Assembly: GCF_900046455.1 (NCBI RefSeq)
Contig: NZ_FCOT01000011.1
Coordinates: 124,001 to 188,000 of the forward strand
Source of the DNA: Cellulomonas timonensis
GTDB lineage: Bacteria > Actinomycetota > Actinomycetes > Actinomycetales > Cellulomonadaceae
Reading direction: 5' to 3'
DNA: 64,000 nt
Shown: one piece after another, positions 34,389 through 54,152 of the stretch
Position numbering within the stretch: the first letter of the stretch is position 1
How the letters are laid out: the number at the start of each line of letters is the position of its first letter
The notes under the pieces: model-generated
Told to the model about the DNA's origin: nothing
The model's input: the letters and a program-made list of their open reading frames with translations, nothing else
The model's database searches: none
Position numbers and translations under genes: made by a program

Positions 34389-34411
34389 TCACTGTGGAGA
34401 ATCCTCGCGGG

Positions 34412-35847: not shown

Positions 35848-35891
35848 GGCAGCCGCGCCTGGTTGAGTGCCGCGCCCATCTCCGCGCCCGG

Positions 35892-36916: not shown

Positions 36917-36941
36917 ACCCGTGATCAGAAGGAACAGATTC

Positions 36942-37805: not shown

Positions 37806-37815
37806 GGCCGCACCA

Positions 37816-38694: not shown

Positions 38695-39377
38695 GGCGCA
38701 ACCCGCCCCACGACGTCGTGGACCAACTCCCTCGCCCGCGACCGTTCGCGTGCCGAGCCGTGCTCGGCGAGGTCAGCCGCGACCTGCAGCCGCGTCGACG
38801 CCGCTGGCAGGTGCTCGGTCACGTGCAGCCAGACGTTCGGTCGGTTATCCGCCGGCTCGACGAGCAGGTGCCGGCGCATGACCTTGCGGAGGTCGTCGAC
38901 GTGCACGTAGCCCTCAAATGAGGAGCCTGCCGAGAGGCCCGAGCGCTCGTCGCTGAGGCCTGAGACGACGACCTCGTCGTCTGCCGAGAGGCCTTGGGGC
39001 TCCGCGCCGTGAAGCGCGATCCGGTCGGCGCGGTTGACGACCAGTGCCTGGAGCAGAACCTCGGGCTCCGGGTCGACTCGCAGTCGCGCGAGGTGCTGGC
39101 GCAGCCGCGATCGCTCTGTGGGCGCCACCCACTCGACGGGCCTGCCGTCCGCGAAGAGGAGCAGGGCCCACGCCATGCGTGTGCTCATCGGCCGGCCGGA
39201 TCGGCGTGGCAGCGCGGACAGCTCGGAGAGGTCGTCGATCACATGCTGGTGGCCGATGCGCCGCGACCGCACGCGGCCTGACCGCACGAGCGCGTCGACC
39301 CGCGACCGACTCAGCCCTAAAGCGTCCGCCGCTTGGGCCAGGCTCATGGCCGGCCCGACTCGCTCGGATGCGCTCAT
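38691..39377 (-). CDS. HTH DNA-binding protein, putative antitoxin of the nucleotidyltransferase pair
   Basis: The 228-residue protein starts with an excisionase/MerR-like helix-turn-helix (MSLAQAADALGLSRSRVDAL, then VRSGRVRSRRIGHQHVIDD). A middle part follows (MAWALLLFADGRPVEWVAP) and a C-terminal region (VHVDDLRKVMRRHLLVEPAD, then STRLQVAADLAEHGSARERS) that resembles transcriptional antitoxins paired with nucleotidyltransferases. ATG 39377 lies inside an inverted repeat; a GTG at 39383 is in frame. It ends in an ATGA overlap with the damaged toxin gene. Confidence 0.75.
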   Translation of the reverse strand: MSASERVGPAMSLAQAADALGLSRSRVDALVRSGRVRSRRIGHQHVIDDLSELSALPRRSGRPMSTRMAWALLLFADGRPVEWVAPTERSRLRQHLARLRVDPEPEVLLQALVVNRADRIALHGAEPQGLSADDEVVVSGLSDERSGLSAGSSFEGYVHVDDLRKVMRRHLLVEPADNRPNVWLHVTEHLPAASTRLQVAADLAEHGSARERSRARELVHDVVGRVAP

Positions 39378-39412
39378 ACACACAACCGTAGCGATGTAGC
39401 GATGATTGTGTA
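39377..39412 (-). promoter_or_regulatory. operator/promoter of the antitoxin-toxin pair
   Basis: An imperfect inverted pair (TACACACAA at 39377-39385 and TTGTGTA at 39406-39412) flanks two tandem copies of GTAGCGAT (39388-39395, 39396-39403). The element overlaps the start codon and there is no ribosome site, so the transcript may be leaderless. Autorepression by the HTH protein is the natural reading. Confidence 0.5.
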
Positions 39413-39431
39413 TAGGGCTACAGGGAAGGCT

Positions 39432-40406
39432 CTAGGCCCCGAGCCCTGCCACCTGCGCCGCGGCCTCTGAGAGCAGCCGGTGGGCGCCGGAGCCCTCGGG
39501 CACGACCAGTTCGATGCGGGTGGCGCCGGCGCTCAGCGTGACCACCATGACGCCCAGGTAGTCGGGGTGTGGTGCGACGTCGATCCGGTCCGGGGCGTTG
39601 AGCGGGATGACCAGGCGCGACGCGGAGTGCATGGGCTTCTTGCCGCGCATCAGCCACTCGTGGCGCCCGAACACCTCCAGGGCGAACGAGTCGCCGGCGA
39701 CGACGGCGCCGTGGAGGGTTGCCGGCGAGAGCGCGTGCCCGATGGCCTTGACCGGATCGGCGCCGCGCAGCGCGACCTGTCGTCGTCCGTGCCCCGACCA
39801 CAAGGTCAGGCCGGGCAGGTGGCGGGACACGTCCTGGAAGTCCCCGAGCAGGGAGGCGTCCACTCGGCCGAGGTCCGGTGTGGCGCTGGCGTGCTGGGCG
39901 CCCGATTCGATCAGGGCGAACGCCAGGGGACGCGGGTAGCCCTCCGACGCGCTGGCCCGGAGCTCGTCGACGAGCGTCCTCATCGTGCTCCGGCCTGAGC
40001 CGTTGTACCGGACGGTGAGGTCGGAGCCGGTGCGCGTGTGCAGCGTCAGCGTGCCGTCGAGCAGGTTCATGACGTCACGGACCGCCACCACGTCCTCGAA
40101 CGGGACGTCGCGCACGTCGAAGACGCCCGGCCCTGGCGCTCGCCGGGTCGCGTGGTCGTGCTCGGTGCGCCGTGACAGAACGGTGAGCCCGTCGTCGTCG
40201 AGCACGAGGAGGTGGTCGTACAGGTCCATGTCCGCCGTGGCGTCGCGGCGGGCGATGTTCCGGGGGACCTTGAGCACGAGGCGCGCGGCGTCGAGGTCGA
40301 CCGGGTGTCCGCGGAACAGGCGGGGGATGTCCTCCGGGAGCCGTACCTCGTCGATCCACGGCCCGAAGCGGTCGTACTCGCTGGTTCCGGCCGCTGTGGT
40401 GTCCAT
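39432..40406 (-). CDS. conserved-looking protein of unknown function
   Basis: The 324-residue soluble protein belongs to no family I recognise. Its first half reads as beta-rich (YDHLLVLDDDGLTVLSRR, then GTLTLHTRTGSDLTVRYNGS), resembling PH-like or membrane-proximal sensor folds. The second half has HSASRLVIPLNAPDRIDVAP and LGVMVVTLSAGATRIELVVP. No signal peptide or membrane helix is visible. ATG 40406 follows CGGAGAG. Part of it is duplicated as a remnant at 37816-37890. It is divergent from the MerR-HEAT operon. Confidence 0.6.
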   Translation of the reverse strand: MDTTAAGTSEYDRFGPWIDEVRLPEDIPRLFRGHPVDLDAARLVLKVPRNIARRDATADMDLYDHLLVLDDDGLTVLSRRTEHDHATRRAPGPGVFDVRDVPFEDVVAVRDVMNLLDGTLTLHTRTGSDLTVRYNGSGRSTMRTLVDELRASASEGYPRPLAFALIESGAQHASATPDLGRVDASLLGDFQDVSRHLPGLTLWSGHGRRQVALRGADPVKAIGHALSPATLHGAVVAGDSFALEVFGRHEWLMRGKKPMHSASRLVIPLNAPDRIDVAPHPDYLGVMVVTLSAGATRIELVVPEGSGAHRLLSEAAAQVAGLGA

Positions 40407-40511
40407 GTCTCTCCGTCTGCCTCTCGGCGGGTCGCCCACTGCTGTGTGCTCAGACGGTGACGGCGCCCTCGCTCATCGTGGGGGGAATCTACTGGACCTC
40501 AGGGCGCGGCC

Positions 40512-40542
40512 TTGACCTTGACACCATGACAAGGTCTTGGCT
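40512..40542 (+). promoter_or_regulatory. MerR-type promoter/operator
   Basis: GACCTTG (40514-40520) and CAAGGTC (40530-40536) form a perfect 7-bp dyad with a 9-nt spacer. It follows a -35-like TTGACC (40512-40517) with an overlapping TTGACA (40518-40523). A dyad placed between -35 and a distant -10, with about 19 nt between them, is the classic arrangement for MerR activators. The -10 (TTGGCT, 40537-40542) is weak, as expected for an activator-dependent promoter. The MerR-HEAT protein two genes down is the likely binder. Confidence 0.7.
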
Positions 40543-40562
40543 GGGCTGCGGAGGTGGTGGAG

Positions 40563-41204
40563 ATGGACACGCAGGTGATCGAGGCACTCGCGGCCGGGAA
40601 CTCGTCCACGCGACTGCAGGCGGCACTCGCCGCAGGGACGCGGCCCGACCCGCGCCTTGTCGACGTGCTCGTGGAGCGCTGCGCCGTCGAGCCGGACTTC
40701 TACGTGCGGGACATGCTGACCTGGGCGCTCACCCGGGCGCCCGCCGAGCACACCGTGCCGCTGCTGCGCGCCGAGCTCCGGTCCGACCGGCCGCAGGCGA
40801 GGAGCCAGGCGCTGCACACGCTGTCCAAGATCGGCGACAGGTCCGTGTGGCCATCCGTCACCCGGTCCCTGCTGCACGACCCGGACGACGAGGTCGCCCG
40901 CAGTGCCTGGCGCGCCGCCGTCCTGCTCGTGCCCGCCGACGAGGAGGCCGCACTCGCCGCCGACCTCGTGACGCAACTCGGTCGAGGCGACCGCGAGGTG
41001 CAACTCAGCCTCAGCCGCGCCCTCGAAGCCCTCGGAGACGTCACCCGACCCGCCCTCGAGGCAGCGCGCACACATGCAGACGCGAGGGTGCGCGCCCACG
41101 CACGGGCCACCGAGCGGCTCCTCGACGACCCCGACGCGGGCTTCGACCTGGCGGTCAACGAGGCGAATCGGGCCTACGCGCTCGGCCCCGACCGGGCGCG
41201 CTGA
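40563..41204 (+). CDS. HEAT-repeat protein
   Basis: The roughly 213-residue all-helical protein is built from HEAT-like pairs of about 32 residues: VEPDFYVRDMLTWALTRAP, DRPQARSQALHTLSKIGD, DPDDEVARSAWRAAVLL, GDREVQLSLSRALEALGD. HEAT solenoids are protein-binding scaffolds. The gene follows a GGAGGTGG site and ends 3 nt before a MerR regulator that itself carries HEAT repeats, so the two are co-expressed and may form a pair. Confidence 0.8.
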   Translation: MDTQVIEALAAGNSSTRLQAALAAGTRPDPRLVDVLVERCAVEPDFYVRDMLTWALTRAPAEHTVPLLRAELRSDRPQARSQALHTLSKIGDRSVWPSVTRSLLHDPDDEVARSAWRAAVLLVPADEEAALAADLVTQLGRGDREVQLSLSRALEALGDVTRPALEAARTHADARVRAHARATERLLDDPDAGFDLAVNEANRAYALGPDRAR

Positions 41205-41207
41205 CGC

Positions 41208-42254
41208 ATGCTCATCGGTGAGGCTGCCCGCCGCTCAGGGGTGAGCGCCCGCATGCTCCGGCACTACGACACCCTCGGCCTGGTCCGGCCGACGGGACGG
41301 ACCGTCGGCGGCTACCGCGAGTACTCACCGCAGGACATCCGCAGAATCTTCCACGTCGAGAGCCTGCGGTCGCTCGGCCTGTCGCTGCGGGACATCGGAC
41401 GGGCCCTCGACGACCCCGGCTTCACCCCGACCGCGCTCGTCGCCGATCTGGTCCAGCGCTCGGAGGAGCGCCTGCGACGCGAGCGGGAGCTCCTGGAGCG
41501 GCTGCGCGCCGTCGACTCCTCCGGGCCCGCCGAATGGGAGGACGTCCACCGGCTCGTCGAGCTGCTGCACGGCCTCGCGTCGCCCAGCCCTGCCCGCCGA
41601 CAGCAGACGGCGCTGTCGTCGGAGGACACCCCCGCGACGGCCCGGATGCTCGCTGAGGCGCTCCTCGCCGAACCGGACACGAACGTCGCCGGGGCGCTGC
41701 GCTGGGCCCTTGCGCGTGCCGGTGGCGAGGGAGTGGCGGCGGGGGCCGCCGGGCTGGACTCCGACGACGTCGAAGTGCGCCGCCGTGCGGTCTTCACCCT
41801 CGCTGGAACCACAGGGGACGACGCTGCGGCGTCCCTCCTGCGGGCACTCGACGACCCCGACGTGGCGGTCCGCGAACACGCCGCCCTCGCATTGGGCGGC
41901 CGTGGCGAGCCGGCAGCCGTGCCAGTGCTCATCGCGATGGTGGTGGCGGGGACGAAGGACGTCGAGGCAGGCGAGGCGCTGGGCGTCGTGGCCCAGAAGA
42001 CTGACGACACGGCGATCGTCGGCACGCTCGTCGACACCCTCGCCGCCCACACCGCCGACCCCGCGGTGCGGCTGCGTGTGGCGCAGGCCCTCGCCGAGGT
42101 GCCCGGCGCCGACGCCGCTGGGGTGCTCGCCGACCTCATGCGCGACCCCGATCGGGCGGTATCCCTCACGGCCACCGCTATCTCGCGAATGCGCGACCGC
42201 ACCGGGCGCACCTCAGCCAACAATGCCAATGACCGGCTGGCACCCGGCCACTAG
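41208..42254 (+). CDS. MerR-family regulator fused to C-terminal HEAT repeats
   Basis: The 348-residue protein has an N-terminal MerR winged helix (MLIGEAARRSGVSARMLRHY, GGYREYSPQDIRRI, residues 1-70) and a dimerising coiled coil (about 75-115: QRSEERLRRERELLERLRAV). In place of a small ligand pocket it has about 200 residues of HEAT repeats (SDDVEVRRRAVFTLAGTTGD, DPDVAVREHAALALGG). This suggests a regulator that senses a protein partner, possibly the HEAT protein upstream. It starts at ATG 41208. Confidence 0.88.
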   Translation: MLIGEAARRSGVSARMLRHYDTLGLVRPTGRTVGGYREYSPQDIRRIFHVESLRSLGLSLRDIGRALDDPGFTPTALVADLVQRSEERLRRERELLERLRAVDSSGPAEWEDVHRLVELLHGLASPSPARRQQTALSSEDTPATARMLAEALLAEPDTNVAGALRWALARAGGEGVAAGAAGLDSDDVEVRRRAVFTLAGTTGDDAAASLLRALDDPDVAVREHAALALGGRGEPAAVPVLIAMVVAGTKDVEAGEALGVVAQKTDDTAIVGTLVDTLAAHTADPAVRLRVAQALAEVPGADAAGVLADLMRDPDRAVSLTATAISRMRDRTGRTSANNANDRLAPGH

Positions 42255-42347
42255 AGTCCCGCCTATGGGCTCCTGACCTGCGAAAACCCAGTGTGCCGCA
42301 CCACCGCTGCGGCGCCTCCGCACGTCCTCTCGCACCAGGAGCACCCC

Positions 42348-43187
42348 ATGCCCTCAGCCCTGCCCCGACCCGAGCCCTTCAGCGCCTTCACCACCCCCGA
42401 GTTCTGGGACGACGCGCACATCTCCGCCCGAATGCTGGCCCTGCATCTCGACCCCGAGGCGGCGCCGGCCTCCCGTCCCCACGCCTTCATCGATCGCTCA
42501 GTGGAGTGGCTGGTCGAGGCCCTAGTACTGCGCCGCGGAAGCCGGGTGCTCGACCTCGGGTGCGGGCCCGGCCTGTACGCCTGCCGCCTCGCCCGCCAGG
42601 GCATCGAGGTCACCGGGCTCGACGTGTCGCGTCGGTCGATCGCCCACGCCCGCTCGATTGCAGACGCCGAAGGGCTGCCCGCCGAGTTCCGCCGGGCCGA
42701 CTACCTGCGAGACGACCTGGGCCACGGGTTCGACGCCGCGATCCTCATCTACGAGGACTTCTGCACCCTCAGCCCGGATCAGCGAGCGGGCCTGCTGCGT
42801 CGAACCCGGGAGGCGCTACGTCCTGGGGGCGCCCTCGTGATGGACGTGACCGCTGCCCCGCGCTTCGACCTCGAGAGCGCGGGAGTCGTGCGCGAACCCG
42901 ACCTGATGGGAGGTTTCTGGGCTCGGTCGCCTTACATGGGAACTCATGAGACCTGGACGTACCCCGAGCTCCGGCTGGTGCTCGACCGCTACACAATCGA
43001 CACCGGGTCCGAGGTCCGGCAGTTCTGGAACTGGCTGCACTGCCTGACACCAGCCCAGGTCACCGCGGAACTCACCGCCGCGGCCCTGACAGCGCCAGAC
43101 CTGTTCGGCGACGTGACCGGCGCCCCGTTCGACCCGACCGCGCCGACGTTCGCCGTCCTCACTCGGGCTGCGCCACCCCAGCCCTGA
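42348..43187 (+). CDS. SAM-dependent class I methyltransferase
   Basis: The 279-residue methyltransferase has the SAM motif VLDLGCGPGLYACRLA (about 67-82), the motif II acidic residue GLDVSRRSIAHAR, and LRPGGALVMDVT. The N-terminal helical part (PFSAFTTPEFWDDAHISARM) and the late WTYPELRLVLDRY segment are shared with small-molecule methyltransferases. The substrate is unknown. ATG 42348 follows CCAGGAGCACC. It appears to stand alone. Confidence 0.88.
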   Translation: MPSALPRPEPFSAFTTPEFWDDAHISARMLALHLDPEAAPASRPHAFIDRSVEWLVEALVLRRGSRVLDLGCGPGLYACRLARQGIEVTGLDVSRRSIAHARSIADAEGLPAEFRRADYLRDDLGHGFDAAILIYEDFCTLSPDQRAGLLRRTREALRPGGALVMDVTAAPRFDLESAGVVREPDLMGGFWARSPYMGTHETWTYPELRLVLDRYTIDTGSEVRQFWNWLHCLTPAQVTAELTAAALTAPDLFGDVTGAPFDPTAPTFAVLTRAAPPQP

Positions 43188-43248
43188 CTGCGATCAGGGC
43201 GCTCATCGACTCCCCCGCCCGACGGCGTCGAGCGAGCCCGTCGGGTGG

Positions 43249-45276
43249 TCAGCCGAGCGCTCGCTCCACCTGCTGCACCAGGTACAACGACCGCAGCAGC
43301 GACTCCGCCGGATCGATGCTCGGGTCCGGCTCGGCGAACACGGACAGGCCGACCGCTCGGGCGGCGGCATGGGCCCGCGCCAGCCGACGGTGGACCTCCC
43401 CCGGCACGGTCCCGCCGCACCCGCGCTGTGCGGCCTGCTCGACGACGGATCGCAAGGCCGCCACCGGGGCGGGGACCAGCCCGGCATCGTCGACCGGCGC
43501 GTCCGGTGGGGTCGGCCGGTCCGCGGCGCCGGCGGCCAGTAGTCCGGCCACGAGCGCAGACTCCGCGGTGGACCCGGGGTCGGGGTCGGGGTCGAAGTGC
43601 AGCGCGTCGATCGCACCCCGCTCGGGCAGCACAAGGCTGAGCGGCTCACCCACCAGCTGACCCCGCACTCGTTGGACACGTGCCACCACACCCGCGCCCT
43701 GCGGGAATGCCCCACCGAGCGCCTCGATGCGGCTGATCGCATGCGCGTGCAGCCGGGACCACGGCACCTCGAGCGTCAGGACGTCGCCGTCGCCGTCCAG
43801 CAGCGGCCAGCGCAGCGTCTGTGCCACGCCATCCCACTGCGCCGGCAGCGAGCCAGCCGCCCGCAGGACGGTCCACATCGAGGACTGATCGGCCGGGTCG
43901 CGCAGACCGGTGGCCCGGCGGACGGCCAGCTCGCCCCAGGACTCCCGCACCGGCAGCGCATCCAACAGGGCCGCTCCGCGCAGCTCGGTGACTGCGGCTG
44001 TCGTGGCCTCCACCCCGGACAGCCGCCCGTCCGGGCTGACCTGCGCATGCGTCAGGACGATCCGCCGGCCGGTCGCCGCCGCGGGTGTGGACAGGCCGGT
44101 CCACGGGCCAGGCTGCGTCCACCGCGCACGCGGGGCGAACCCCGGCAACGTGTCGGGGCGCGCGTCGGTCCACGTGAGCATCCGGGACCCCGCCGCATCC
44201 CAGAAGAGGCACGTCAGCCCTTGGTAGCCCGAGCCTGTGCGCCACGGACGCCCGCCAAGCCCCACCAGGTCGAGCCGGCGCACCTGGTCGTATGACGTGC
44301 GGGCCCTGCCGAGCAGGGCGGGCGGCTCCTCCCCGGCGGCGTTGTCGAGGGCGGCCACGAGGGCGTGCGCGACGGCCACCTCGTCGAGCAGGGCCAGGTC
44401 GTCCGCACGCGCCGAGCGGGCCAGCAGCAGTTCGACCTCGTCGGCGATCCGGCGCATCAGCAGGGCGAGCCGGTGGTACTCGACGCCCTGCGCCCACACG
44501 GCAGATGTCACCAGGCGCTCATGGATCGCGGGCGACAAGTGGGAGATGCCGACGCGGACCGTGTCGTGGAGAACGGCGGTGGCCGTGCCTCGCAGGCGCT
44601 GCCGGGACTCCACGCGCGACAGCGACTCCTCACTCGGCCGCGACTTCGGCGGTGGGGGTGGTGCCAGGACCAGGCCGTGCGCCCGCTGCCACGCGAGGAC
44701 CACTGCCACCCGGAAGCGCTCGACGTGGGGCACCGCCTCGTCGAGCAGCAGGGCGTCGAGGCCCCCGCCCAGGTAGCGGGCCGTCAGGCCGCGGCGCGGG
44801 AACGTGACGCTCAGGTAGCCGTCACGCGTCAGCTCGGGTGGCTCGTCCGCGTCGTCCAGCGCCTGGCACGCCCACCGGTATCCGGGCAGCCCGGCGTACG
44901 CCGTCAGGGTCTCGACGTCGAACCCCATGAGCTCCGCGTGCAGGGCGTCCGTGGCGCCGCTCACTGACTCGTCCGTGTCCGGCGCGGCCGGCGCCACGGC
45001 TCCGGCGGCGAGCCACAGGCCGGCGGTGAGGATGTGCTGGCAGGTCACAGCGCTCGGGCAGGAGCACGTGGCCTGGCCAGGACCGGCCACCCCGATGCGC
45101 ACCGTCGCCTCCCCGACGCCGACCTCGACGTCGGAGCCATGCTCCGCGACGACCCGCACGGTCGACGACTCGAGGTCCTTGCGGGCGCGCCGCAGCAGTC
45201 CACGGTTCGCCAGGGCCACCCACGCGTCCTCGTCGTACCGGGCCAGCACCGCTGCGACGTCGGCACTCCCACTCAT
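43249..45276 (-). CDS. SWIM zinc-finger protein of the MoxR/VWA island (YehQ-like)
   Basis: The 675-residue protein has an N-terminal SWIM zinc finger CSCPSAVTCQH (Cys71, Cys73, Cys79, His81), a fold that binds DNA or protein. A long helical region without recognised domains follows, containing ESREESLSR-like charged segments and a conserved-looking TGSGYQGLTCLFWDAAGSRM. ATG 45276 overlaps the VWA stop (ATGA). It is the last gene of the five-gene operon and may supply a nucleic-acid or partner-binding part of the ATPase complex. Confidence 0.85.
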   Translation of the reverse strand: MSGSADVAAVLARYDEDAWVALANRGLLRRARKDLESSTVRVVAEHGSDVEVGVGEATVRIGVAGPGQATCSCPSAVTCQHILTAGLWLAAGAVAPAAPDTDESVSGATDALHAELMGFDVETLTAYAGLPGYRWACQALDDADEPPELTRDGYLSVTFPRRGLTARYLGGGLDALLLDEAVPHVERFRVAVVLAWQRAHGLVLAPPPPPKSRPSEESLSRVESRQRLRGTATAVLHDTVRVGISHLSPAIHERLVTSAVWAQGVEYHRLALLMRRIADEVELLLARSARADDLALLDEVAVAHALVAALDNAAGEEPPALLGRARTSYDQVRRLDLVGLGGRPWRTGSGYQGLTCLFWDAAGSRMLTWTDARPDTLPGFAPRARWTQPGPWTGLSTPAAATGRRIVLTHAQVSPDGRLSGVEATTAAVTELRGAALLDALPVRESWGELAVRRATGLRDPADQSSMWTVLRAAGSLPAQWDGVAQTLRWPLLDGDGDVLTLEVPWSRLHAHAISRIEALGGAFPQGAGVVARVQRVRGQLVGEPLSLVLPERGAIDALHFDPDPDPGSTAESALVAGLLAAGAADRPTPPDAPVDDAGLVPAPVAALRSVVEQAAQRGCGGTVPGEVHRRLARAHAAARAVGLSVFAEPDPSIDPAESLLRSLYLVQQVERALG

Positions 45277-46415
45277 CGTGCGGTCACCTCCGCGAGCCAC
45301 TCGGCGAGCCGCCCCGGGGTCAGCGCGGAGACCGGCATCCCGACATCGGCGAGGTCCTGGGCCATCCGCTTGTCATAGGCCGGGTGCGCGGTCCCGTCGA
45401 GGGAGGCCAGGCCGATCGTCGTCACCCGCGCCTCGACGAGACGGCGGACGGCCGCGACAAGGTGGGACGGTGGCCCGCCCTCGCAGAAGTCGCTGACGAG
45501 CACCACGACGGCCTTGGCCGGGTTCTCGATGATCTGCTCGGCGTACGTGACCGCCTGGGCGATGTCGGTGCCGCCCCCGAGCTGAACTGTCATGAGGAGC
45601 TCGACGGGATCGCCGGCGAGGTCGGTCAGGTCGACGACGCTGGTGTCGAAGACGACCAGGCGCAATCGGTAGGCCGGCAGGCCGGCGAGGATGCCCGCCA
45701 TCACGGCGCTGTGGATGACGGACCCGACCATCGACCCGCTCTGGTCGACGAGCAGGACGACCTCCCAGGGGATGCGGCGGGTGTCCCGCTGGAAGAACAG
45801 CGGCCGCTCGACGATGAGGCGCTGACTGTCCGCGTCCCAGTGCCGCAGGTTGGCCCGGATGGTGCCGCGGGGGTCGAAGTTCGCGGTGACGGCGAGCGGC
45901 GAGTGGCGGTGCTGGCTGAGCCGGCCCGTCAACGCCTGGCGGACCTCGTTCTCGAGCCGGCGTCGCAGATCGTCCACGACGGCGCGGACGATCCGGCGCA
46001 CCTCGCCCAGCACGGTGGGGTCGAGGTGTCCTTTGAGGGACAGGAGGGTCTTGAGCAGCGCCTCGCTGGGCTCGATCCGGGCGAGCACCTCGGCGTCGCT
46101 CACGAGCTCTGTCAGGCCGTAGCGGTCCAGGGCGTGGCGCTCGATCGTCTCGACGGTCTCGCGCGGGAACAGCTCGCGCACCTCGCCAAGCCAGTCGACG
46201 ATCGACGGTGCGGACGGGTCCAGGGAGCCGGGTGACAGGTCCCGGTCGGAGCCGTCCGTCCCGTCATCGGCGCGCCCGCCGCGGCCGGCGTACTCCCGCC
46301 CGTACAGGTACTCCAGGGCGGCCTCGTAGCGCAGCCCGTCGGAGTCCTGCGGGGCGGGGAGGCGCCCGTCGGCGTATCGCCCCAGGACGAGGCGCCATCG
46401 GTCCGTCGGCCTCAT
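45273..46415 (-). CDS. VWA domain protein of the MoxR island (YehP/CoxE-like)
   Basis: The 380-residue protein has a helical N-terminal half and a C-terminal von Willebrand A domain (about 215-380) with an intact MIDAS motif DQSGSM (Asp224, Ser226, Ser228), the threonine-bearing GGGTDIAQA and the late aspartate in VLVSDFCEGG. VWA proteins of this kind are metal-dependent adaptors for MoxR ATPases. ATG 46415 starts 14 nt past the DUF5682 stop; the longer open frame upstream is a shadow of DUF5682. Confidence 0.9.
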   Translation of the reverse strand: MRPTDRWRLVLGRYADGRLPAPQDSDGLRYEAALEYLYGREYAGRGGRADDGTDGSDRDLSPGSLDPSAPSIVDWLGEVRELFPRETVETIERHALDRYGLTELVSDAEVLARIEPSEALLKTLLSLKGHLDPTVLGEVRRIVRAVVDDLRRRLENEVRQALTGRLSQHRHSPLAVTANFDPRGTIRANLRHWDADSQRLIVERPLFFQRDTRRIPWEVVLLVDQSGSMVGSVIHSAVMAGILAGLPAYRLRLVVFDTSVVDLTDLAGDPVELLMTVQLGGGTDIAQAVTYAEQIIENPAKAVVVLVSDFCEGGPPSHLVAAVRRLVEARVTTIGLASLDGTAHPAYDKRMAQDLADVGMPVSALTPGRLAEWLAEVTAR

Positions 46416-46428
46416 CGGTGCGACCGCC

Positions 46429-48867
46429 TCATGGGTGCGACCCGGTCGCGGCCCAGGCCCCGAGGCCGTCGCGCTCGAGCACCTCGACGAGGCTCTGGGA
46501 CAACTCCGCGAGCGCCTGGACCGTGTGCTCGTCGACATCGCGCCGCAGCGGCACATCCGGCCGCGCGCCCCCGTGCAGTGCCGCGACAGCCCCGGCGACG
46601 CGGTCCGTCTCGCGAGGGGTGAGTCCAGCGAAGGCGAGCCGGAGGTCGGGCAGCGTGGACAGGAACGTGGGCTGGTCCCAGTCGACGAGTCGCGAGTCCA
46701 ACGCTGAGACCACACCGGAGTCCTGCCACACCGTCTCCCGCGCCGTCGCGAAGAGGCCGCGCACGAACCCGACCGACTCGTGCGCGTCGATCGAGCCGGC
46801 GAGGTGCCCCGCGACGTCCCGCGCCAGGTCGTCGGCATCGAGCCGCCCGGCGGTGGACGCCAGCCCCGCCGACGCCCCCCGCACCAGCGCCCTCGTGTGC
46901 TCATGTCGCAGCCGTTCGACGAGCTCCCAGAACGGCGCCGCGTCCAGGTCCTGCCCCCCGGGCGAGGCGAGCAGCTCGCGCAGGCGCGCCAGCGCCGTCG
47001 CGACGTCTTCCGGGGGCTCCTCGTCGCCTCGCAGTTGTGCCCCCAAGTACAGGCAGCGCGCGTAGGAGTGCGCGACCAGCTCGGCGAGTCCTGCGAGGCG
47101 CCCGGACTCGACTGCCTCGCGGCCGTCTGCCAGGAGGGCCAACGCCCCCACCGCGTGCACCGCGTCCACAAAGGATGTCTCGGCCCCCAGCGCGTGCCGC
47201 ACCAGCTCGACCACCGGCGCAGTCCTGTCATGCAGCCCCACGACTGCCCCCTGGGCGAGCAGGGAGACCGCGTCGACGCTCCTCGGCGTCCGGCCGTCCT
47301 CCGTGGCAGCGGCGACAAGGGACCCGAACCGCCCCTCCACGGCCTCGTCCAAAGTGGAGCCCAGCATCGACACCTCCGCGAGGCAGCCCTCGGTGGACGG
47401 TCCCCAGAGATAGGTCCACCGTTCCTGCAGACGGGTCAGGCCCCTCCCGCGCACGAAGTCCGGCCCCGCGACATGGGTGGCGAACGGCACGCCGAGCAGC
47501 GCCAAACCGTGCAGGGCCCGGCTCGTGCGGCGGTGCGGGGCGCTGCGGTACAGGTCCAAGGCCAGGGTGCGCGGCTCGATGGCGTCGGTGTCGAGGCGCA
47601 GCTCCCGCAGCCGGGCCAGGGTGTCCCGGACCAGCGGCGGTGTCCCGGCCCCGGGTGGCACGCGCCCCACCCGGTCGCCGGTGAGCATGCGACGGGTCGC
47701 GGTCGCCACGACGAGGCCCTCGACGTCGGCGTCGCCCTGCACCAGGCAACTGGTGATGGCGTCGACCAGGTCGCTGCGCAGCGGCGCCGGACGGCCTCGC
47801 AACTCGGCGAGCGTGAGCGCCTGCTGGTACGCCGCTGCCAGCGTCGGTGTCGCCACGGGCGACCCGTGGCGGCCCCTGAGCTCGGCCGCGAGGTCCAGCA
47901 GCGCCGTCAGTGTCGCGTTCACCCGAGCCGTGTCGGCGGCGGTGCCGCTGAGGTGCTCGTCCCAGACGCGTTGGTGCCATCCCGGCGATGTCATGCCGCT
48001 GTCGTAGCCGTTGAGCCGGTCGAGCCGGTCGAAGCCGTAGCGGACCAGCGCATGGCCGTCCTCGACGGCCCCGACGTCCACGTTGGGCCTGGCGGGTGCG
48101 GATGCGAGCAGGTCGGGCATGGCGACAGCGTGGAAGCCGCCGACGACGACCATCACCGGGCCGTCGCCCGGTTGCCGCGCGCGAAGCGCCTCCCGCACGT
48201 GCCACACCATCTCCGCCTCGCGCGGACGCGTCCCGTCACGGTCCAACTCGGCGTCGGTGCTGTCCCGCCGCGCGAGCACGCAGTACGCCGTCATCCGGTC
48301 CAGGTGGGCGTCCAGGCCGTCGTCGGCGCCAGCCTCGAACAGCAACTCCCACAGGTCTTCCTGGTCGCGGCAGCCGAGGCGCTCGGCGAGAGCGGCCAGC
48401 GACCGGCTGTGCGCGTACACGTCCTCGCGCAGCAGCGACCCGGCGCCGGGCAGCACCGTGCTCGACGCGGCCGCCGCTTGCTCCCCGACCTCGAGGTCGC
48501 AGAAGGCGACGGGCACGCCGGCCGCGTGGGCCAGCCGCGTGGCGACCAGCTCGGGTGAGTAGTCGCAGAACGGGTAGTACCCGCCATGCCCCTCCCCCGG
48601 CGCGGTGGACCGGCCAGCCGGTCGGGACCACGCGTACACGGCGAGCGGGAATCGCGCCTCGGGGTGGCAGAGCAGGTCGACCAGGCCGGTGAACGACCGC
48701 GGCCCCTCGATCAGCACACGTGACGGGGCATGCCGCTCGAACGCCGCGGTGACAGCGCGCGCGCACGCGGGGCTGTGGTGCCGCACGGGGATCACCACCA
48801 CGTCGTCGCTGACGAGCCGGGCGGACAGCGCCCGCACGTCGTCGCCGGTCGGAAGCGGAAAGGTCAA
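46429..48867 (-). CDS. DUF5682 family protein of the MoxR island (YehM-like)
   Basis: The 812-residue protein opens with VIPVRHHSPACARAV (26-40), the hallmark of DUF5682, followed by VLIEGPRSF. The N-terminal third alternates strands and helices like an enzyme domain, and the conserved His-His pair could be catalytic or metal-binding. The rest is largely helical. The start is an unusual TTG at 48867 whose TTGA overlaps the ATPase stop, so translation is coupled. Its activity is not known to me. It is the largest partner specific to this system after DUF4132. Confidence 0.85.
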   Translation of the reverse strand: MTFPLPTGDDVRALSARLVSDDVVVIPVRHHSPACARAVTAAFERHAPSRVLIEGPRSFTGLVDLLCHPEARFPLAVYAWSRPAGRSTAPGEGHGGYYPFCDYSPELVATRLAHAAGVPVAFCDLEVGEQAAAASSTVLPGAGSLLREDVYAHSRSLAALAERLGCRDQEDLWELLFEAGADDGLDAHLDRMTAYCVLARRDSTDAELDRDGTRPREAEMVWHVREALRARQPGDGPVMVVVGGFHAVAMPDLLASAPARPNVDVGAVEDGHALVRYGFDRLDRLNGYDSGMTSPGWHQRVWDEHLSGTAADTARVNATLTALLDLAAELRGRHGSPVATPTLAAAYQQALTLAELRGRPAPLRSDLVDAITSCLVQGDADVEGLVVATATRRMLTGDRVGRVPPGAGTPPLVRDTLARLRELRLDTDAIEPRTLALDLYRSAPHRRTSRALHGLALLGVPFATHVAGPDFVRGRGLTRLQERWTYLWGPSTEGCLAEVSMLGSTLDEAVEGRFGSLVAAATEDGRTPRSVDAVSLLAQGAVVGLHDRTAPVVELVRHALGAETSFVDAVHAVGALALLADGREAVESGRLAGLAELVAHSYARCLYLGAQLRGDEEPPEDVATALARLRELLASPGGQDLDAAPFWELVERLRHEHTRALVRGASAGLASTAGRLDADDLARDVAGHLAGSIDAHESVGFVRGLFATARETVWQDSGVVSALDSRLVDWDQPTFLSTLPDLRLAFAGLTPRETDRVAGAVAALHGGARPDVPLRRDVDEHTVQALAELSQSLVEVLERDGLGAWAATGSHP

Positions 48868-49970
48868 CGGTCGAGCTCTCCGCGGGTCTCCAGGACGGAC
48901 TTCCAGCGTCGGTCCCGCTTCGCGCGGGGCCGCACGACGACGTCGAAGTAGTGCTGCAGCTTCTTCCCGTCCTCCGGGTTGTCCTTGAGCACGGTGCCGA
49001 TGAGCTGCCGGGCGAGGTGTCCGCCGCCCACCTCGCCGTCGCCGAAGTAGTGGGCGTCCAGCGCCGCCGCGTACCCCACCGCGACGGCCTCGGCCGAGCT
49101 CATCACCGCGGTCGGCCTCTCGACGGCGATCCCGTCGGCCGTCACCCCGTCACGCAGATCGTGGAACGCCGTGACCAGCAGGTCCACGACATCCGGGGCG
49201 AGGCGGGTGTCGATGCCGCCCTGCGCGAGTAGCTCGGACGTCTGCTCCAGGATGAGGCGGCGCTCCAGGTCGCGGTCCCGGATCGGGCGCACCGTCTCGA
49301 AGTTGAACCGGCGCTTGAGGGCGCTCGACATCTCGTGGACGCCACGGTCGCGTAAGTTCGCCGTGGCGAGGACGTTGAAGCCCCGGGCCGCGAACACGAC
49401 GCTCTCCGGCCCGGCGAGCTCGGGGACGTGGAGGACCTTGTCGGACATCACGCCGATCAGGACGTCCTGGATCTCCGGCTGGACGCGGGTGACCTCTTCG
49501 AACCGGCACACGGCGCCGTCGGTCATCGCCCGGTGCAGGGGCCCCCGCACGAGCGCGCGGGGTGTCGGGCCCTCCGCCAGCAGGAGCGCGTAGTTCCACG
49601 AGTACGTGATCTGGTCGCCGGTGGTGCCGGAGCTGCCCTGCACCGTGCAGGTCGAGTCGCCTGAGACCGCCGCGGCGAGCAACTCGGACAGCATCGACTT
49701 CGCCGTGCCGGGCTCACCGACCAGCAGCAGGCCGCGGCTGCTCATGAGCGTCACGACGCACCGGTCCACCAGGGCGTCGTCACCGTAGAACTTCCGGGTC
49801 ACGCCGAGCCGTGGGTCGCCGACGATGAAGGCCCGCACCGCGCGGGGCGTCAGGCGCCAACCCGCCGGCCGGCTCCCCGCGTCGGCAGCGGCCAGGGCGG
49901 CCAGCTCGGCGGCGAACTCGACCTCGGCCGGGGCGCGCAGCACCCTGGTGGTCACGGGGTCAGCAGTCAC
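48864..49970 (-). CDS. MoxR-type AAA+ ATPase of the island (YehL-like)
   Basis: The 368-residue AAA+ protein has Walker A GEPGTAKS (85-92), Walker B with CRFEE (155-159), sensor 1 in NVLATAN, and the arginine-finger region MSSALKRRFNFETV. The middle insertion GSSGTTGDQITYSWNYALL is characteristic of the YehL branch. MoxR ATPases remodel proteins with VWA partners, and a VWA gene lies two genes downstream. GTG 49970 is preceded by GGCGGAG and lies 2 nt after the DUF4132 stop. Confidence 0.93.
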   Translation of the reverse strand: MTADPVTTRVLRAPAEVEFAAELAALAAADAGSRPAGWRLTPRAVRAFIVGDPRLGVTRKFYGDDALVDRCVVTLMSSRGLLLVGEPGTAKSMLSELLAAAVSGDSTCTVQGSSGTTGDQITYSWNYALLLAEGPTPRALVRGPLHRAMTDGAVCRFEEVTRVQPEIQDVLIGVMSDKVLHVPELAGPESVVFAARGFNVLATANLRDRGVHEMSSALKRRFNFETVRPIRDRDLERRLILEQTSELLAQGGIDTRLAPDVVDLLVTAFHDLRDGVTADGIAVERPTAVMSSAEAVAVGYAAALDAHYFGDGEVGGGHLARQLIGTVLKDNPEDGKKLQHYFDVVVRPRAKRDRRWKSVLETRGELDR

Positions 49971-49972
49971 TG

Positions 49973-52900
49973 TCAGTACTCCGCCTTCTTCTGCCAGTCC
50001 GGGTCGAACCCGCCGCCCTGTGCCGCCATCTGGCGCAGGTCATGCCAGCACTCGGACACGAGGACCGCTGGGACGTCGCCGAGGGTGAGCTGCTCGCGCT
50101 CGGGCGCGCCGGGCCGCACACGGTGGAATGACAGCGTGCGCAGGGCCACCAGGCGGTCCTCCTCGGGGAGCGTGTTCCCGGTGAACTCGACCTCCGCGAC
50201 GATGCCGAGCGTCGGGAACCGCTTCGCGTAGGAGGTGAACCAGCCGCCGTCGCCGGGCGCACCGCGGGTGTAGCCCAGCCGGGTGGCGCGGCTCCGCAGC
50301 GCGTACGCCTGGAGCGTGTGCCCCTCGAAATCGTCCAGCGTGTGCCGCGAGCGGTCCTGCGCGGTGACGGCGTGCACGCCACGCCCGAGCTGCTGGAACA
50401 ACGGGGAGATCTCGTAGTCGGCCAGGTGGGCGGTCCACGCCTCGACCTGGCCGGCCGTCAGGACGCTGTCATGCGCGAGCCGCACCCGTGCTGTCGCCGC
50501 CAGGGTCACCGGCTCGTCGTCGACGTCGGTGAGGCTCCCGTCGTCGAGGGGCCGGAACACGACCGGCTCGGCTCCCGCCCCGTCGGTCGCGACCCACACC
50601 AGCCGTCGGACGGCCGGTCCCACGACGGGGTGCGCGGCGAGGTAGCGCTGCCAGTCCTCGGCCGACCACGACCGCTCGGTGCACAGCGCCTCGTACAGCC
50701 GCCGCGACTGCAGGTCCGCGACCGTCTTGACGTCCTTCTTGGCCATGGTGAGCGCCTTCTTGGCGTCCTTGGCCTGCTCGGGGTCGTCGGACTGCCGCGG
50801 CGCCGGAAGGGCCTTGATCGGCTTGCCGTCGGGGTCGCGCAGGTCCACGGTCAGGCCGGGGAGCAACCGGGCGGTGAAGACCCGTGGCCCATAGGACAGC
50901 TCGAGCAGCCCGTCGTCGCCGAAGCCGCCCGTCGGGATGGTGCGGTCGGCCAGCTCGTCGACCGTCCACCCCTTGCGCTCGGCCAACGCCTGCGCCTGCG
51001 CCATGGCCTCCTCCTGGAAGCCCTTGGTGCGGAACCGGGAGCCGATGGCGAGCACGAGCTGCGTCGCGGACGGATGGTCCACCCAGGCCAGCATGGCGAT
51101 GAGGGCCTTGCCCTGGGCTGCGCGCTGGCCGAACCACTCGCGCAGGTACCGCTCCGTGGGGGCGACAACGTCACGACCACCGCATGCGGCGATGACGGCG
51201 AGCACCCCCTTGCTGGAGATCGCCGATCCCGCTGGCTGTCGCAGATACACGGGCAGCAGCGCCGCAGTCAGCTGCTCGACAGTCATCCCGTGGAATGGGC
51301 TGTCCGCGTCACGCGTCCAGGGATGGCTGCTCACGGCGTCATTCCGGGCGTGTTCCTCCGCGACATCCGCGGGGATCGGGCGCACGTCAGCCTGCAGCCA
51401 CCCGGTCAGCAGGTGGTGCGCGAGCCGCTGCCTGTCAGCGGGCGCGAACAGTGCCGCGTACTGCCGCAGCACAGCGTCCGGCTCGGGCGAGCGGGCCTTG
51501 ACGGCAGTCGCGCACAGCCACTGCACGACCTCGCGCGGCACCCTCTCCCCCGAGGCGGCCCAAGCGATGTCCGGGAGCGCGTCCCAGTCGCACCAGTCCA
51601 GTGCGGAGGGCAACCCCTTGCTGACTGCCTTCGCCGCGTTCTGGCTGGTCGCCTGCGGGTCGAGGTAGGTCTCGGCGCGCTCACCCAGCGCGAGCAGGGC
51701 GTCGAGCAGGGCGCCCCGCACGACGTCGTTGCGTTCCTTGGCCCAGGCGGCCTGCAGCGCGGGAAGCGTCGCGGGGTCCGCGAGCCGGGTCAGCCACTGC
51801 GTCGCGACGAGGCGACGGTCGCTCTTCCCGTCCTGAAGCCCGGCGGCGGCGCGGGACGCGATCTGGGGGGCGCCGGCAAGCGCCTCCTGAGCGGGCCCAC
51901 GCAGCGCCTTGCGGGACCCGAGCGCGAGCGGGACCAGTGCGTCGACAAGCCGCGCGGGCCGCGTCGGCAGCGTGGCGGTCGCTGCGAACAGCGCGAGCTC
52001 GTCGACCTCCCACCCGGTGCGGGACGGCTCGGCGAGAATCCAGTCCAGGTGCTCGGCGACGAACGGCCAGACGTCCGCGTCGTCCCAGCCACGGCCCAGC
52101 CGCGGACCGTAGGAGCCGGAGTAGGAGCCCCAGACCCGCGCACGGCCGTCCAGTCCCATCTCGTCGAACATGGCCTTGAGCGTGCGCAGATCAGGCTTCC
52201 CGGTGCGGCGGTACAGGTCGTCCAGGACGGCCACACCCCCGCCGTACCCGCCGCGCCTCTCGAGCATGTCGAGCACGGGGATGAGCTTCACCGCGCTGAC
52301 CACGTCGAGGAGCCCCTCACCGGCCAGCTTGAGGAGCACTCGCGTGGTCGACCACGTCGGCGCCTCGAGCCACGCCTGCGTCGAGGGAGCCGCGTCGGAG
52401 ACGAGCACGGCCACCAGGTCCCGGAACGTGCGCTCCGTCGGCAGGGGCATGACACGCCCGGCACCCTGGCCCGGCGAACGCGCCATGACGCTCTGGTTGT
52501 AGCCCTCGATGGCACTCGACAATTCCGCGACGAGGCGCCGCGCACACGCCTCCGCCGCCTGCCGGGGGACGGCCCAGCGGATCGGTGGCAAAGGCTCGGG
52601 CCGGTCGTCATCCTCCGGCGGGTCGACGAGCACCGCCGCGTCCCACTTCGTGACCAGAGCCTGGACGCTCGCGGCGCGGTCGGCCAGCGCCGTCTTCCGG
52701 GCCCATTCGAGCTCCTCGGGCCGGGCCGCGAGCAACTCGAGGGCGCGCCCGCGTACTTGAGGGCTGCCCTGGACCGCGGTGACTCGCGGCGCCGCCGCCG
52801 CTGGCCCAGCCCCGCGCCCCAGGGGGGCCTCGGCGTGCCCCCGCACCTGCCGGCTCGTCCCGGTAGCCGCCTCGACGAGCGGATCGACGACCGCCTCGAG

Positions 52901-53587
52901 CTCGTCGTCGGTGAGCGCGGCGCCGACGACGCCCAGCGCCGCGACCCGGGCGTCGACCGACTCCGCCGTCAGCATGGCCGCGACCCGGTCGGGGTGCGCG
53001 AGCAGGGCGTCGCCGAACCCGGGCAGCCGGGCCAGCTGCGCGCAGGTGTATCGCGGGCAGTAGTGCGACCGTGTCTCGATCGTCAGCATCGCGGTGACGA
53101 GCTCAGCAGGGCCCACCTCGTCCAGCGCGGCGATCCGCGCGATGTCGACGAAGCCGCCGGGCAGCGGCCCAGGCGCGGGGGTGGCGGCGACCATCTGGGC
53201 GATCATCAAGTCATGCCAGGACTTGCCGGCGATGGGCACCGCCGTCCTGCCCCAGACGCGCCGACCCTGGACGGCGTCGAGGACGTGCCCCCACCTGCGC
53301 AGGACGGAGGCATCGACAGTTCCGAGCCCGGCATACAGGGACCGCAAGGCCGGCAAGTCGGCCTTGCCTGTGTCGCCATTCCCCCTCGGGAGCCACGAGA
53401 TATGGCTCGCGCTCATGAGGTTCGACAACACCCCCAAGAAAGCGGGGTCGCGTCCGGTCAGCACATAGTCGGCGACCCGGCGGGCTTCCGGAAGTGAGGA
53501 GGCGACCTTTTCCAGGTCCCGGACCCACCCCCGTGAGGGGCGTCCCACGGTGTCCGCACCACGTCGTCCGAGCCCGAACAGCGCCAT
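49973..53587 (-). CDS. DUF4132 family giant protein of the MoxR island (YehI/MolR-like)
   Basis: The 1204-residue protein is the first gene of the operon. Most of it is helical with HEAT-like blocks (ALGSRKALRGPAQEALAGAP, RLADPATLPALQAAWAKE). The C-terminal part (about 900-1150: ELSYGPRVFTARLLPGLTV, ALTMAKKDVKTVADLQSRR, SPLFQQLGRGVHAV) is the DUF4132 domain. Start ATG 53587 is preferred over 53593 because the AGGGAG site fits its spacing. Family members accompany MoxR, VWA and SWIM proteins in many bacteria. The name MolR refers to an old E. coli locus and does not establish function. Confidence 0.87.
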   Translation of the reverse strand: MALFGLGRRGADTVGRPSRGWVRDLEKVASSLPEARRVADYVLTGRDPAFLGVLSNLMSASHISWLPRGNGDTGKADLPALRSLYAGLGTVDASVLRRWGHVLDAVQGRRVWGRTAVPIAGKSWHDLMIAQMVAATPAPGPLPGGFVDIARIAALDEVGPAELVTAMLTIETRSHYCPRYTCAQLARLPGFGDALLAHPDRVAAMLTAESVDARVAALGVVGAALTDDELEAVVDPLVEAATGTSRQVRGHAEAPLGRGAGPAAAAPRVTAVQGSPQVRGRALELLAARPEELEWARKTALADRAASVQALVTKWDAAVLVDPPEDDDRPEPLPPIRWAVPRQAAEACARRLVAELSSAIEGYNQSVMARSPGQGAGRVMPLPTERTFRDLVAVLVSDAAPSTQAWLEAPTWSTTRVLLKLAGEGLLDVVSAVKLIPVLDMLERRGGYGGGVAVLDDLYRRTGKPDLRTLKAMFDEMGLDGRARVWGSYSGSYGPRLGRGWDDADVWPFVAEHLDWILAEPSRTGWEVDELALFAATATLPTRPARLVDALVPLALGSRKALRGPAQEALAGAPQIASRAAAGLQDGKSDRRLVATQWLTRLADPATLPALQAAWAKERNDVVRGALLDALLALGERAETYLDPQATSQNAAKAVSKGLPSALDWCDWDALPDIAWAASGERVPREVVQWLCATAVKARSPEPDAVLRQYAALFAPADRQRLAHHLLTGWLQADVRPIPADVAEEHARNDAVSSHPWTRDADSPFHGMTVEQLTAALLPVYLRQPAGSAISSKGVLAVIAACGGRDVVAPTERYLREWFGQRAAQGKALIAMLAWVDHPSATQLVLAIGSRFRTKGFQEEAMAQAQALAERKGWTVDELADRTIPTGGFGDDGLLELSYGPRVFTARLLPGLTVDLRDPDGKPIKALPAPRQSDDPEQAKDAKKALTMAKKDVKTVADLQSRRLYEALCTERSWSAEDWQRYLAAHPVVGPAVRRLVWVATDGAGAEPVVFRPLDDGSLTDVDDEPVTLAATARVRLAHDSVLTAGQVEAWTAHLADYEISPLFQQLGRGVHAVTAQDRSRHTLDDFEGHTLQAYALRSRATRLGYTRGAPGDGGWFTSYAKRFPTLGIVAEVEFTGNTLPEEDRLVALRTLSFHRVRPGAPEREQLTLGDVPAVLVSECWHDLRQMAAQGGGFDPDWQKKAEY

Positions 53588-54011
53588 CGCCATCTCCCTA
53601 GGGTCGATCCCGCCGCGAGCGTAGCGGCGTCCACCGACGCGAAGGATCGACCAGCCGCGGCCAAATGGGTGGCTCATCGCTCAACCGAGCCCGTATCGCC
53701 CCTGGGAGCTCCGCGCCCAGGTCAGAGCGCCAAAAGGCTCGTGATCAGCCGTCAACTCCGCTTCGAGATGGCGACCGCGGTCAGGGCGGCTGCGACGCAT
53801 ACCGGGTAGACCGCATTGGGCTGGGCCCACCGCTACGAGAAGGGAGTTCTCCGCATCGGAACCGTCGGGGCCTTGCTCACCGGGCGTTCGCGTCGAGGCG
53901 AGACGTGCGTTCGAGGCGGAGCGACGCGGTCCCGAGTGGAGGAGGAGCCGGTGCCAGCGCTGCCCTCTCGACAGCCATGCCGCCCATCCCGACGCCCAGA
54001 ATGACGAAGAA
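53588..54011. other. intergenic region without a supported gene
   Basis: About 420 nt lie between the start of the DUF4132 gene and the tRNA terminator. A plus-strand frame of 119 codons (53665-54024) is arginine, proline and serine-rich, has no ribosome site and looks like chance. The region must carry the promoter of the five-gene operon, but I see no convincing -10/-35 pair or dyad. Confidence 0.5.
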
Positions 54012-54033
54012 CCGGAGACCCTGAGGTCTCCGG
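54012..54033 (-). terminator. terminator of tRNA-Leu
   Basis: CCGGAGACC-CTGA-GGTCTCCGG is a perfect 9-bp stem with a 4-nt loop. On the minus strand it is followed by TTCTTCGTC, a short T-rich run. It lies 36 nt past the tRNA 3' end in the direction of tRNA transcription, a typical rho-independent layout. Confidence 0.8.
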
Positions 54034-54069
54034 CTCTTCATCGGCCTGGGACATCTCCCAGGCAACACG

Positions 54070-54152
54070 TGCGCGAGGGGGGATTTGAACCCCCACGCCC
54101 TTTCGGACACTGGCACCTGAAGCCAGCGCGTCTGCCGTTCCGCCACTCGCGC
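54070..54152 (-). tRNA. tRNA-Leu (anticodon CAG)
   Basis: Read on the minus strand, the acceptor arms GCGCGAG and CTCGCGC pair perfectly, followed by discriminator A. The anticodon stem-loop CTGGC-TTCAGGT-GCCAG gives anticodon CAG, so it reads CUG leucine codons, frequent in high-GC genes. A long variable arm and the GGTTCAAATCC T-arm confirm a class II tRNA. CCA is not encoded. A -10-like GATAATGTT lies just upstream. Confidence 0.97.

What the first reader, a model, noticed from the sequence alone, without database searches (positions are those of the whole stretch)
43249..53587. Five-gene MoxR-VWA-SWIM-DUF5682-DUF4132 operon, a yeh-like ATPase machine
Five minus-strand genes are packed with overlaps or gaps of 2-14 nt in the order DUF4132, AAA+ MoxR, DUF5682, VWA, SWIM. 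Every key motif is intact: Walker A GEPGTAKS, MIDAS DQSGSM, SWIM Cys71/73/79-His81, and HHSP of DUF5682. The set and order match E. coli yehI, yehL, yehM, yehP, yehQ as I know them, whose role is unresolved. Conservation over such distance in a translationally coupled block argues for one complex: an ATPase with VWA adaptor, a large scaffold, a possible enzyme (DUF5682) and a nucleic-acid or protein-binding finger. Function in protein remodelling, metal-centre maturation or biological conflict is open.
Basis: partly seen in the sequence, partly recalled or inferred. Interest (0 to 1): 0.85.

Follow-up and report, generated by a model that had tools for sequence, protein, structure and literature searches.

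The report
AAA+ machine with TraB-like hydrolase
The five genes are real and are the actinobacterial version of the E. coli yeh cluster, a widespread bacterial protein-remodelling motor that seems to carry its own built-in enzyme of a known hydrolase fold, which makes this unexplained gene cluster testable.

Summary
In detail: five coupled minus-strand genes, DUF4132, YehL-type MoxR, DUF5682, CoxE-type VWA and SWIM. The set is strongly conserved: of 61 relatives' loci with at least 9 kb on both sides of MoxR, 56 hold all five, though the loci were selected by their MoxR. New here: (1) The N-terminal domain of DUF5682 resembles the TraB/Tiki hydrolase superfamily; H30, E54, H246 and R-E-x-x-M are conserved in 72 of 72 sequences. 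A profile match, weak Pfam hits and the top fold hits agree; no fold hit is significant alone. (2) The system is modular: of 87 DUF5682 places in the three stronger bins of a 296-genome class sample, 84 have DUF4132 or DUF5691 within 15 kb and none has both. (3) Three ORFs fuse DUF5682 to the VWA, which argues for contact. (4) The window copy looks horizontally acquired, beside a tRNA-Leu. Best model: a MoxR-VWA motor that remodels or metallates its own TraB-like hydrolase, with SWIM and HEAT proteins as receptor parts. Defence is not excluded but weakly supported: yehL is in 5171 of 5426 E. coli genomes and neighbours show no clear defence enrichment.

The parts
49973..53587 (-). DUF4132 gene (ATG 53587; longest ATG 53677): HEAT-type repeats plus C-terminal DUF4132 domain; predicted large receptor/scaffold subunit
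   Evidence: profile matches to HEAT and artificial alphaRep chains
48864..49970 (-). MoxR AAA+ ATPase of the YehL type (GTG start)
49695..49718 (-). Walker A GEPGTAKS (MoxR residues 85-92)
46429..48867 (-). DUF5682 gene (TTG start): N-terminal TraB/Tiki-like domain followed by a helical-repeat region
47968..48825 (-). Predicted TraB/Tiki-like hydrolase domain (residues about 15-300) with R29 H30 H31, E54, D124, R216 E217 M220, G243, H246
   Evidence: conservation; profiles; model and fold
45273..46415 (-). VWA protein, CoxE type, with intact MIDAS (D224, S226, S228, T283, D309)
43249..45276 (-). SWIM zinc-finger protein (ATG 45276; GTG 45300 possible)
   Evidence: (below Pfam cut-off)
45034..45066 (-). 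SWIM zinc ligands CxC...CxH
54069..54152 (-). tRNA-Leu(CAG); homology to relatives resumes at its 3' end, so it bounds the variable stretch that holds the operon

Best explanation
A five-part AAA+ machine. The MoxR (YehL type) ring and its CoxE-type VWA partner form an ATP-driven remodelling motor, as in NorQ-NorD. Its direct client is the co-encoded DUF5682 protein, whose N-terminal domain is a TraB/Tiki-like hydrolase and whose C-terminal helical repeats hold the VWA. The motor loads a metal into, opens or resets that active site. The SWIM protein and a swappable large subunit (DUF4132, or DUF5691 in another subfamily) recognise the trigger or substrate. Shown here: gene set, conserved motifs, pairing rules, DUF5682-VWA fusions. 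Inferred: the complex itself, the hydrolase activity, metal loading, the substrate and the trigger.
For: 56 of 61 loci with 9 kb on each side hold all five genes. DUF5682 found with MoxR in 78 of 80 loci (77 strong; none found in L037 and L086). DUF5682 and VWA_CoxE are one ORF in L102, L200 and L205. H30, E54, R216, E217, M220 and H246 kept in 72 of 72 sequences. Profile match to TraB_PrgY_gumN: probability 79, score 45.9, against at most 17.6 for 60 column-shuffled decoys and probability below 1 for the six unrelated alignments tried. Pfam at E up to 1: 14 of 63 N-domains hit ChaN 'Tiki superfamily' (best 0.0011) and 4 hit TraB (best 0.051). Fold: best PDB hit 2rad (BcR135), best BFVD hit 'TraB family protein'. 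Precedent: the NorD linker is remodelled by NorQ for metal insertion (PMC13036017, abstract).
Against: No fold hit reaches E 0.001 (2rad 0.023; second PDB hit 7w5z_E, a Tetrahymena complex IV chain, 0.031; BFVD 1.4e-3), and the full-length search gave only helical-repeat noise. The profile match rests mostly on 42 columns around REaxM...GGFH; the N-terminal half alone gives probability 2.8, score 21.4 against a decoy maximum of 17.55. Global-mode hhalign gave 90, but a decoy scored higher in that mode, so it is not counted. The Gly of the first GxxH motif is absent (P27). The match to erythromycin esterases is weak (2.9) and to ChaN modest (19). In Pfam 5 of 63 N-domains also hit B12-binding (best 0.014) and the window's own N-domain hits that, not ChaN or TraB. 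The PDB sequence profile search gave two hits, both at E above 1. No complex was modelled and no activity is known.
Confidence: 0.5

Rival explanations
1. A metal-centre or complex-assembly chaperone for a target encoded elsewhere, as NorQD serves nitric oxide reductase; DUF5682, SWIM and DUF4132 would be adaptors.
For: MoxR-VWA pairs studied so far act this way (PMC3893208 passages; PMC13036017 abstract); the superfamily has a haem-binding branch (ChaN, Pfam description).
Against: Among 622 neighbour ORFs of 80 loci, 12 clusters recur in 3 or more loci; judged by eye from one representative each, none is a metalloenzyme shared by unrelated genomes (an endonuclease IV-like gene recurs in three Gilliamella loci only). 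The invariant residues of DUF5682 look catalytic. A client encoded elsewhere would not be seen this way.
Confidence: 0.22
2. An anti-phage or other biological-conflict system related in design to the MoxR-vWA ternary systems.
For: Position beside a tRNA-Leu in a variable site and apparent horizontal transfer; in the closest relative G006 the stretch between operon and tRNA holds DruM-type methylase and AbiTii matches; an Iodobacter plasmid copy lies beside a type I restriction system.
Against: No PADLOC match for the five better than E 0.058; yehL in 5171 and yehQ in 5310 of 5426 E. coli genomes; 119 neighbour ORFs gave 13 PADLOC families at E up to 1e-10, 9 of them with one member, against 6 families for 119 control ORFs from 20 regions of 12 genomes, a small excess without a clear theme; bpMoxR below its cut-off. 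Effector variability was not tested systematically.
Confidence: 0.15
3. A DNA-damage or nucleic-acid stress system: SWIM and WGR domains would bind nucleic acid.
For: An E. coli DUF4132 paralogue carries a WGR domain; a D. radiodurans DUF4132 protein, DRA0166, rises after mitomycin C under DdrO/IrrE control (PMC8533742, passages).
Against: Six box patterns (LexA, actinobacterial, alphaproteobacterial and DdrO types, written from recall) are not clearly enriched upstream of 79 operons: 2, 13, 0, 0, 2 and 0 hits against 1.2, 9.2, 0.7, 0.2, 2.9 and 0.2 expected. The window DUF4132 has no WGR match. DRA0166 was not shown to lie beside MoxR or DUF5682.
Confidence: 0.1

Closest known systems
E. coli yehI-yehL-yehM-yehP-yehQ (YehL subfamily of MoxR)
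   Same: Same five families in the same order; MoxR 46-47% identical.
   Different: The window copy is tightly coupled and has one DUF4132 gene without a WGR match; the E. coli copy has two DUF4132 genes and a 1 kb gap. No tested function found for either.
NorQ-NorD, RavA-ViaA and other MoxR-VWA pairs
   Same: MoxR AAA+ with a VWA partner in one operon (PMC13036017 abstract; PMC3893208 passages; PMC9976466 search listing only).
   Different: Here the pair comes with an enzyme-like DUF5682, a SWIM protein and a HEAT-rich subunit, and no metalloenzyme gene was seen beside it.
MoxR-vWA ternary conflict systems (VMAP, iSTAND, FtsH, beta-propeller)
   Same: MoxR plus VWA plus a third conserved protein; VMAP systems keep a strict gene order (PMC7159879, passages).
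   Different: Third component is DUF5682; bpMoxR score below cut-off; the words SWIM and YehL do not occur in that paper's text.
TraB/PrgY/GumN and the TIKI superfamily (TraB, ChaN, erythromycin esterase)
   Same: Profile similarity to TraB, two conserved His and a Glu in the expected order, REaxM-type motif, GGFH motif, top fold hits.
   Different: First motif is PVRHHSP, not GxxH; long helical-repeat C-terminus; fixed link to a MoxR-VWA pair.

Membership tests
YehL subfamily of MoxR ATPases | MoxR/AAA_5 domain with Walker A GxPGTAK(S/T) | tested here: met
YehL subfamily of MoxR ATPases | Full-length similarity to E. coli YehL, with DUF5682, VWA and SWIM genes downstream as in E. coli | tested here: met
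   46-47% identity over 90%; order
MoxR-VWA remodelling pairs | VWA protein with intact MIDAS in the same operon | tested here: met
   (VWA_CoxE 8.6e-53); D, S, S, D in 53 of 53 and T in 52 of 53
MoxR-VWA remodelling pairs | Physical MoxR-VWA complex and ATP-driven remodelling of a client | not testable with these tools
   single-chain models only
TIKI/TraB superfamily | Profile similarity above unrelated folds | tested here: met
   score 45.9 against decoy maximum 17.6; TraB against ChaN, both in the superfamily, gives probability 76 and DUF5682 against TraB 79
TIKI/TraB superfamily | Two His and two Glu at the active site (PMC6254334 passages) | tested here: inconclusive
   H30, E54 and H246 invariant in 72 of 72; no second Glu equivalent assigned and 3D distances not measured
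TIKI/TraB superfamily | First motif GxxH (definition recalled) | tested here: not met
   PVRHHSP; P27 at the Gly position, P in at least 90% of rows
TIKI/TraB superfamily | TIKI core fold with a parallel sheet | tested here: inconclusive
   N-domain model pLDDT 90.9, pTM 0.91; top hits from the superfamily but E 0.023 and 1.4e-3
MoxR-vWA ternary conflict systems | VMAP, iSTAND, FtsH or beta-propeller third component | tested here: not met
   no such Pfam match among the five; bpMoxR 22.9 bits, cut-off 27
Known anti-phage systems (PADLOC) | Match of system proteins to PADLOC models | tested here: not met
   only REase_II at E 0.058 for MoxR

The most novel reading that the evidence does not exclude
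DUF5682 founds a new branch of TIKI-superfamily hydrolases that is switched on by a dedicated MoxR-VWA motor tethered to it, making a widespread and so far undescribed class of AAA+-gated hydrolase or protease machine whose recognition subunit is swapped between two families (DUF4132 or DUF5691).
Probability: 0.35. Interest if true: 0.8.

Novelty: new variant of a known kind. Interest (0 to 1): 0.62.

Why it matters
yehL is matched in 5171 of 5426 E. coli genomes, yet the paper library held no paper with DUF5682 or DUF5691 and three with DUF4132; in the passages read from two of those three no tested function is given. A predicted active site on DUF5682, natural DUF5682-VWA fusions and clear pairing rules turn an unassigned AAA+ operon into something that single-residue mutants in a laboratory E. 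coli can test.

Tried and rejected
Fold search with the full-length DUF5682 model: helical-repeat noise; replaced by the N-terminal domain alone. Sequence search of PDB with the N-domain profile: two hits, both at E above 1. SOS-type boxes upstream: no clear enrichment. Recurrent neighbour genes: none convincing. DUF5691 against DUF4132 profiles: probability 10.6 over 74 columns, not taken as homology. Global-mode hhalign statistics rejected because a shuffled decoy scored 128. First ORF caller failed on GC-rich loci; replaced by HMM annotation of stop-to-stop frames. First extraction of TraB, esterase and ChaN proteins took wrong frames; redone with seed HMMs. Phage collection: one 14 kb unannotated faecal record only. 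The last literature search was swamped by unrelated words.
Full report
Observation. The five genes are present as described: DUF4132 49973-53587 or -53677, MoxR 48864-49970, DUF5682 46429-48867, VWA 45273-46415 and SWIM 43249-45276, all on the minus strand with a 2 nt gap, 4 nt overlap, 13 nt gap and 4 nt overlap. PADLOC gives nothing better than E 0.058.

Conservation. They span Actinomycetota, Pseudomonadota, Bacillota, Planctomycetota, Verrucomicrobiota, Spirochaetota, Cyanobacteriota and others. HMM annotation finds DUF5682 with MoxR in 78 of 80 loci (weak in L084; not found in L037 and L086, both on contigs under 9 kb). Of the 61 loci with 9 kb on both sides of MoxR, 56 hold all five families, 3 lack a detectable DUF4132 (L076, L097, L102) and 2 show only MoxR-DUF5682 (L043, L093). 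Of the 56, 44 have DUF4132-MoxR-DUF5682-VWA-SWIM (16 of them with further DUF4132 matches, some of which may be fragments), 8 have DUF4132 last, 3 start with VWA-SWIM, and 1 has reversed DUF4132 matches at the end. The loci were chosen by MoxR, so this is conditional on MoxR.

Modularity. An annotated Deinococcus plasmid has SWIM-DUF5691-MoxR-DUF5682-VWA, and Pfam confirms DUF5691 in a same-genus relative (L017) and in another genome of the class (L199). In 296 genomes of the class, DUF5682 occurs in 75, DUF5691 in 62 and DUF4132 in 44. I split 103 DUF5682 places by E-value into bins of my own (13 second fragments and 3 places under the cut-off dropped). Of 58 in the strongest bin, 55 have DUF5691 within 15 kb and none DUF4132; the other 3 are in genomes whose DUF5691 was listed on another contig. 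Of 21 in the middle bin 18 have DUF4132; the 3 with DUF5691 are partial hits that probably belong to the first bin. All 8 in the window's bin have DUF4132. Of 16 weak places 15 have neither and 1 has DUF5691. No place had both. All 62 genomes with DUF5691 also have DUF5682. DUF4132 also occurs without it: 29 of the 62 places I entered (of 65 listed) lie within 15 kb of a DUF5682.

Contact. L200 and L205 are likely one lineage, so two origins are suggested rather than shown. In L205 the order is DUF4132, a 1640-aa protein, MoxR, the fusion, and a protein with a weak SWIM match. Pairwise distances of the five families over 65 sets correlate at 0.86 to 0.95, which co-inheritance also explains.

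DUF5682 as a TraB/Tiki-like domain. Over 72 sequences R29, H30, P33, E54, P105, E106, D124, W173, E178, R200, R216, E217, M220, G243 and H246 are invariant and H31 is kept in 71. Full-length model: pLDDT 90.8, pTM 0.86, an alpha/beta N-domain and a helical-repeat remainder. N-domain model: pLDDT 90.9, pTM 0.91. Profile comparison probabilities: TraB 79, ChaN 19, erythromycin esterase 2.9, MoxR 0.29, VWA 0.50, own C-terminus 0.30; TraB against ChaN gives 76; SWIM 0.11, DUF4132 0.18, DUF5691 0.04. Local score 45.9 against a maximum of 17.6 in 60 shuffled decoys and 14.65 reversed. The C-terminal half carries the signal (72.7); the N-terminal half scores 21.4 against a decoy maximum of 17.55 and pairs H30 with the GTxH His and E54 with the Glu, but with probability only 2.8. 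Pfam at E up to 1: 14 of 63 N-domains hit ChaN, best 0.0011, 5 hit B12-binding, best 0.014, and 4 hit TraB, best 0.051. Foldseek: top PDB chain 2rad, E 0.023; 3b55, the same target BcR135, is compared as a TIKI-superfamily protein in PMC6254334 (passages); the top BFVD model is annotated TraB, E 1.4e-3. No hit is below 0.001. The first motif lacks the Gly of GxxH. I therefore call it TraB/Tiki-like and do not file it as a TraB family member.

Window copy. tRNA-Leu(CAG) lies at 54069-54152. Homology to G005 and G006 resumes at 54066, at the tRNA 3' end; G006 shares 40511-53759 at 95% and then has about 35 kb before the tRNA; the 20 kb of G005 next to its tRNA show nothing of 34301-54066, and G005 has no DUF5682. 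Within the genus 4 of 7 genomes have a DUF5682, two of them of this type. Among 65 complete sets, the nearest relatives of all five proteins after G006 are L032-L036 and L038, that is Luteimicrobium, Pedococcus, two Burkholderiaceae bins, a Pseudomonas and Roseateles, not the copies in the same family; a quick 65-row tree of three proteins agrees. This fits horizontal transfer into a tRNA-linked variable site; it was not tested against other histories.

Function. MoxR-VWA pairs remodel clients, and NorQ acts on a NorD linker for metal insertion (PMC13036017, abstract). With an enzyme-like subunit in the same operon, nearly always beside MoxR and sometimes fused to the VWA, the simplest model is that DUF5682 is the client and the output of the motor. 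Defence and DNA-damage readings were tested as far as possible and are weak; the defence-gene neighbours in G006 and Iodobacter are single cases in favour. Prior print: YehL is a named MoxR subfamily (PMC3893208 passages); DUF5682 and DUF5691 give no paper in the library, DUF4132 three; three or more yeh gene names together give one genome announcement (listing).

Noticed in passing
window 34301-54066: Not found in the 20 kb of same-genus G005 next to its tRNA-Leu(CAG), and bounded by the tRNA 3' end: a variable site that holds the operon.
   Followed up: partly
L133, L134 (G006): The closest relative has about 35 kb between operon and tRNA with a DruM-type cytosine methylase (6.6e-174) and an AbiTii match (5.6e-34), and a transposase-like ORF by eye.
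   Followed up: partly
window 40554-43187: HEAT-repeat protein, MerR-HEAT regulator and methyltransferase on the opposite strand are part of the same 13 kb block shared with G006 at 95%.
   Followed up: no
16 weak DUF5682 places, e.g. L202, L203: A distant DUF5682 subfamily in the class; 15 of 16 places have neither DUF4132 nor DUF5691 within 15 kb.
   Followed up: no
MoxR residues 156-159 (window): Walker B region reads RFEE rather than ending in DE; R156, E158 and E159 are in 64 of 64 sequences: a possible hallmark of the YehL type.
   Followed up: no
L040, L045, L070, L072, L074, L080, L081, L087 and others: Two or more DUF4132 matches in tandem in front of MoxR, as in the E. coli copy.
   Followed up: no
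L064, L074, L080 (Gilliamella): An endonuclease IV-like gene (by eye) lies 146-355 nt upstream of the operon in all three Gilliamella loci.
   Followed up: no
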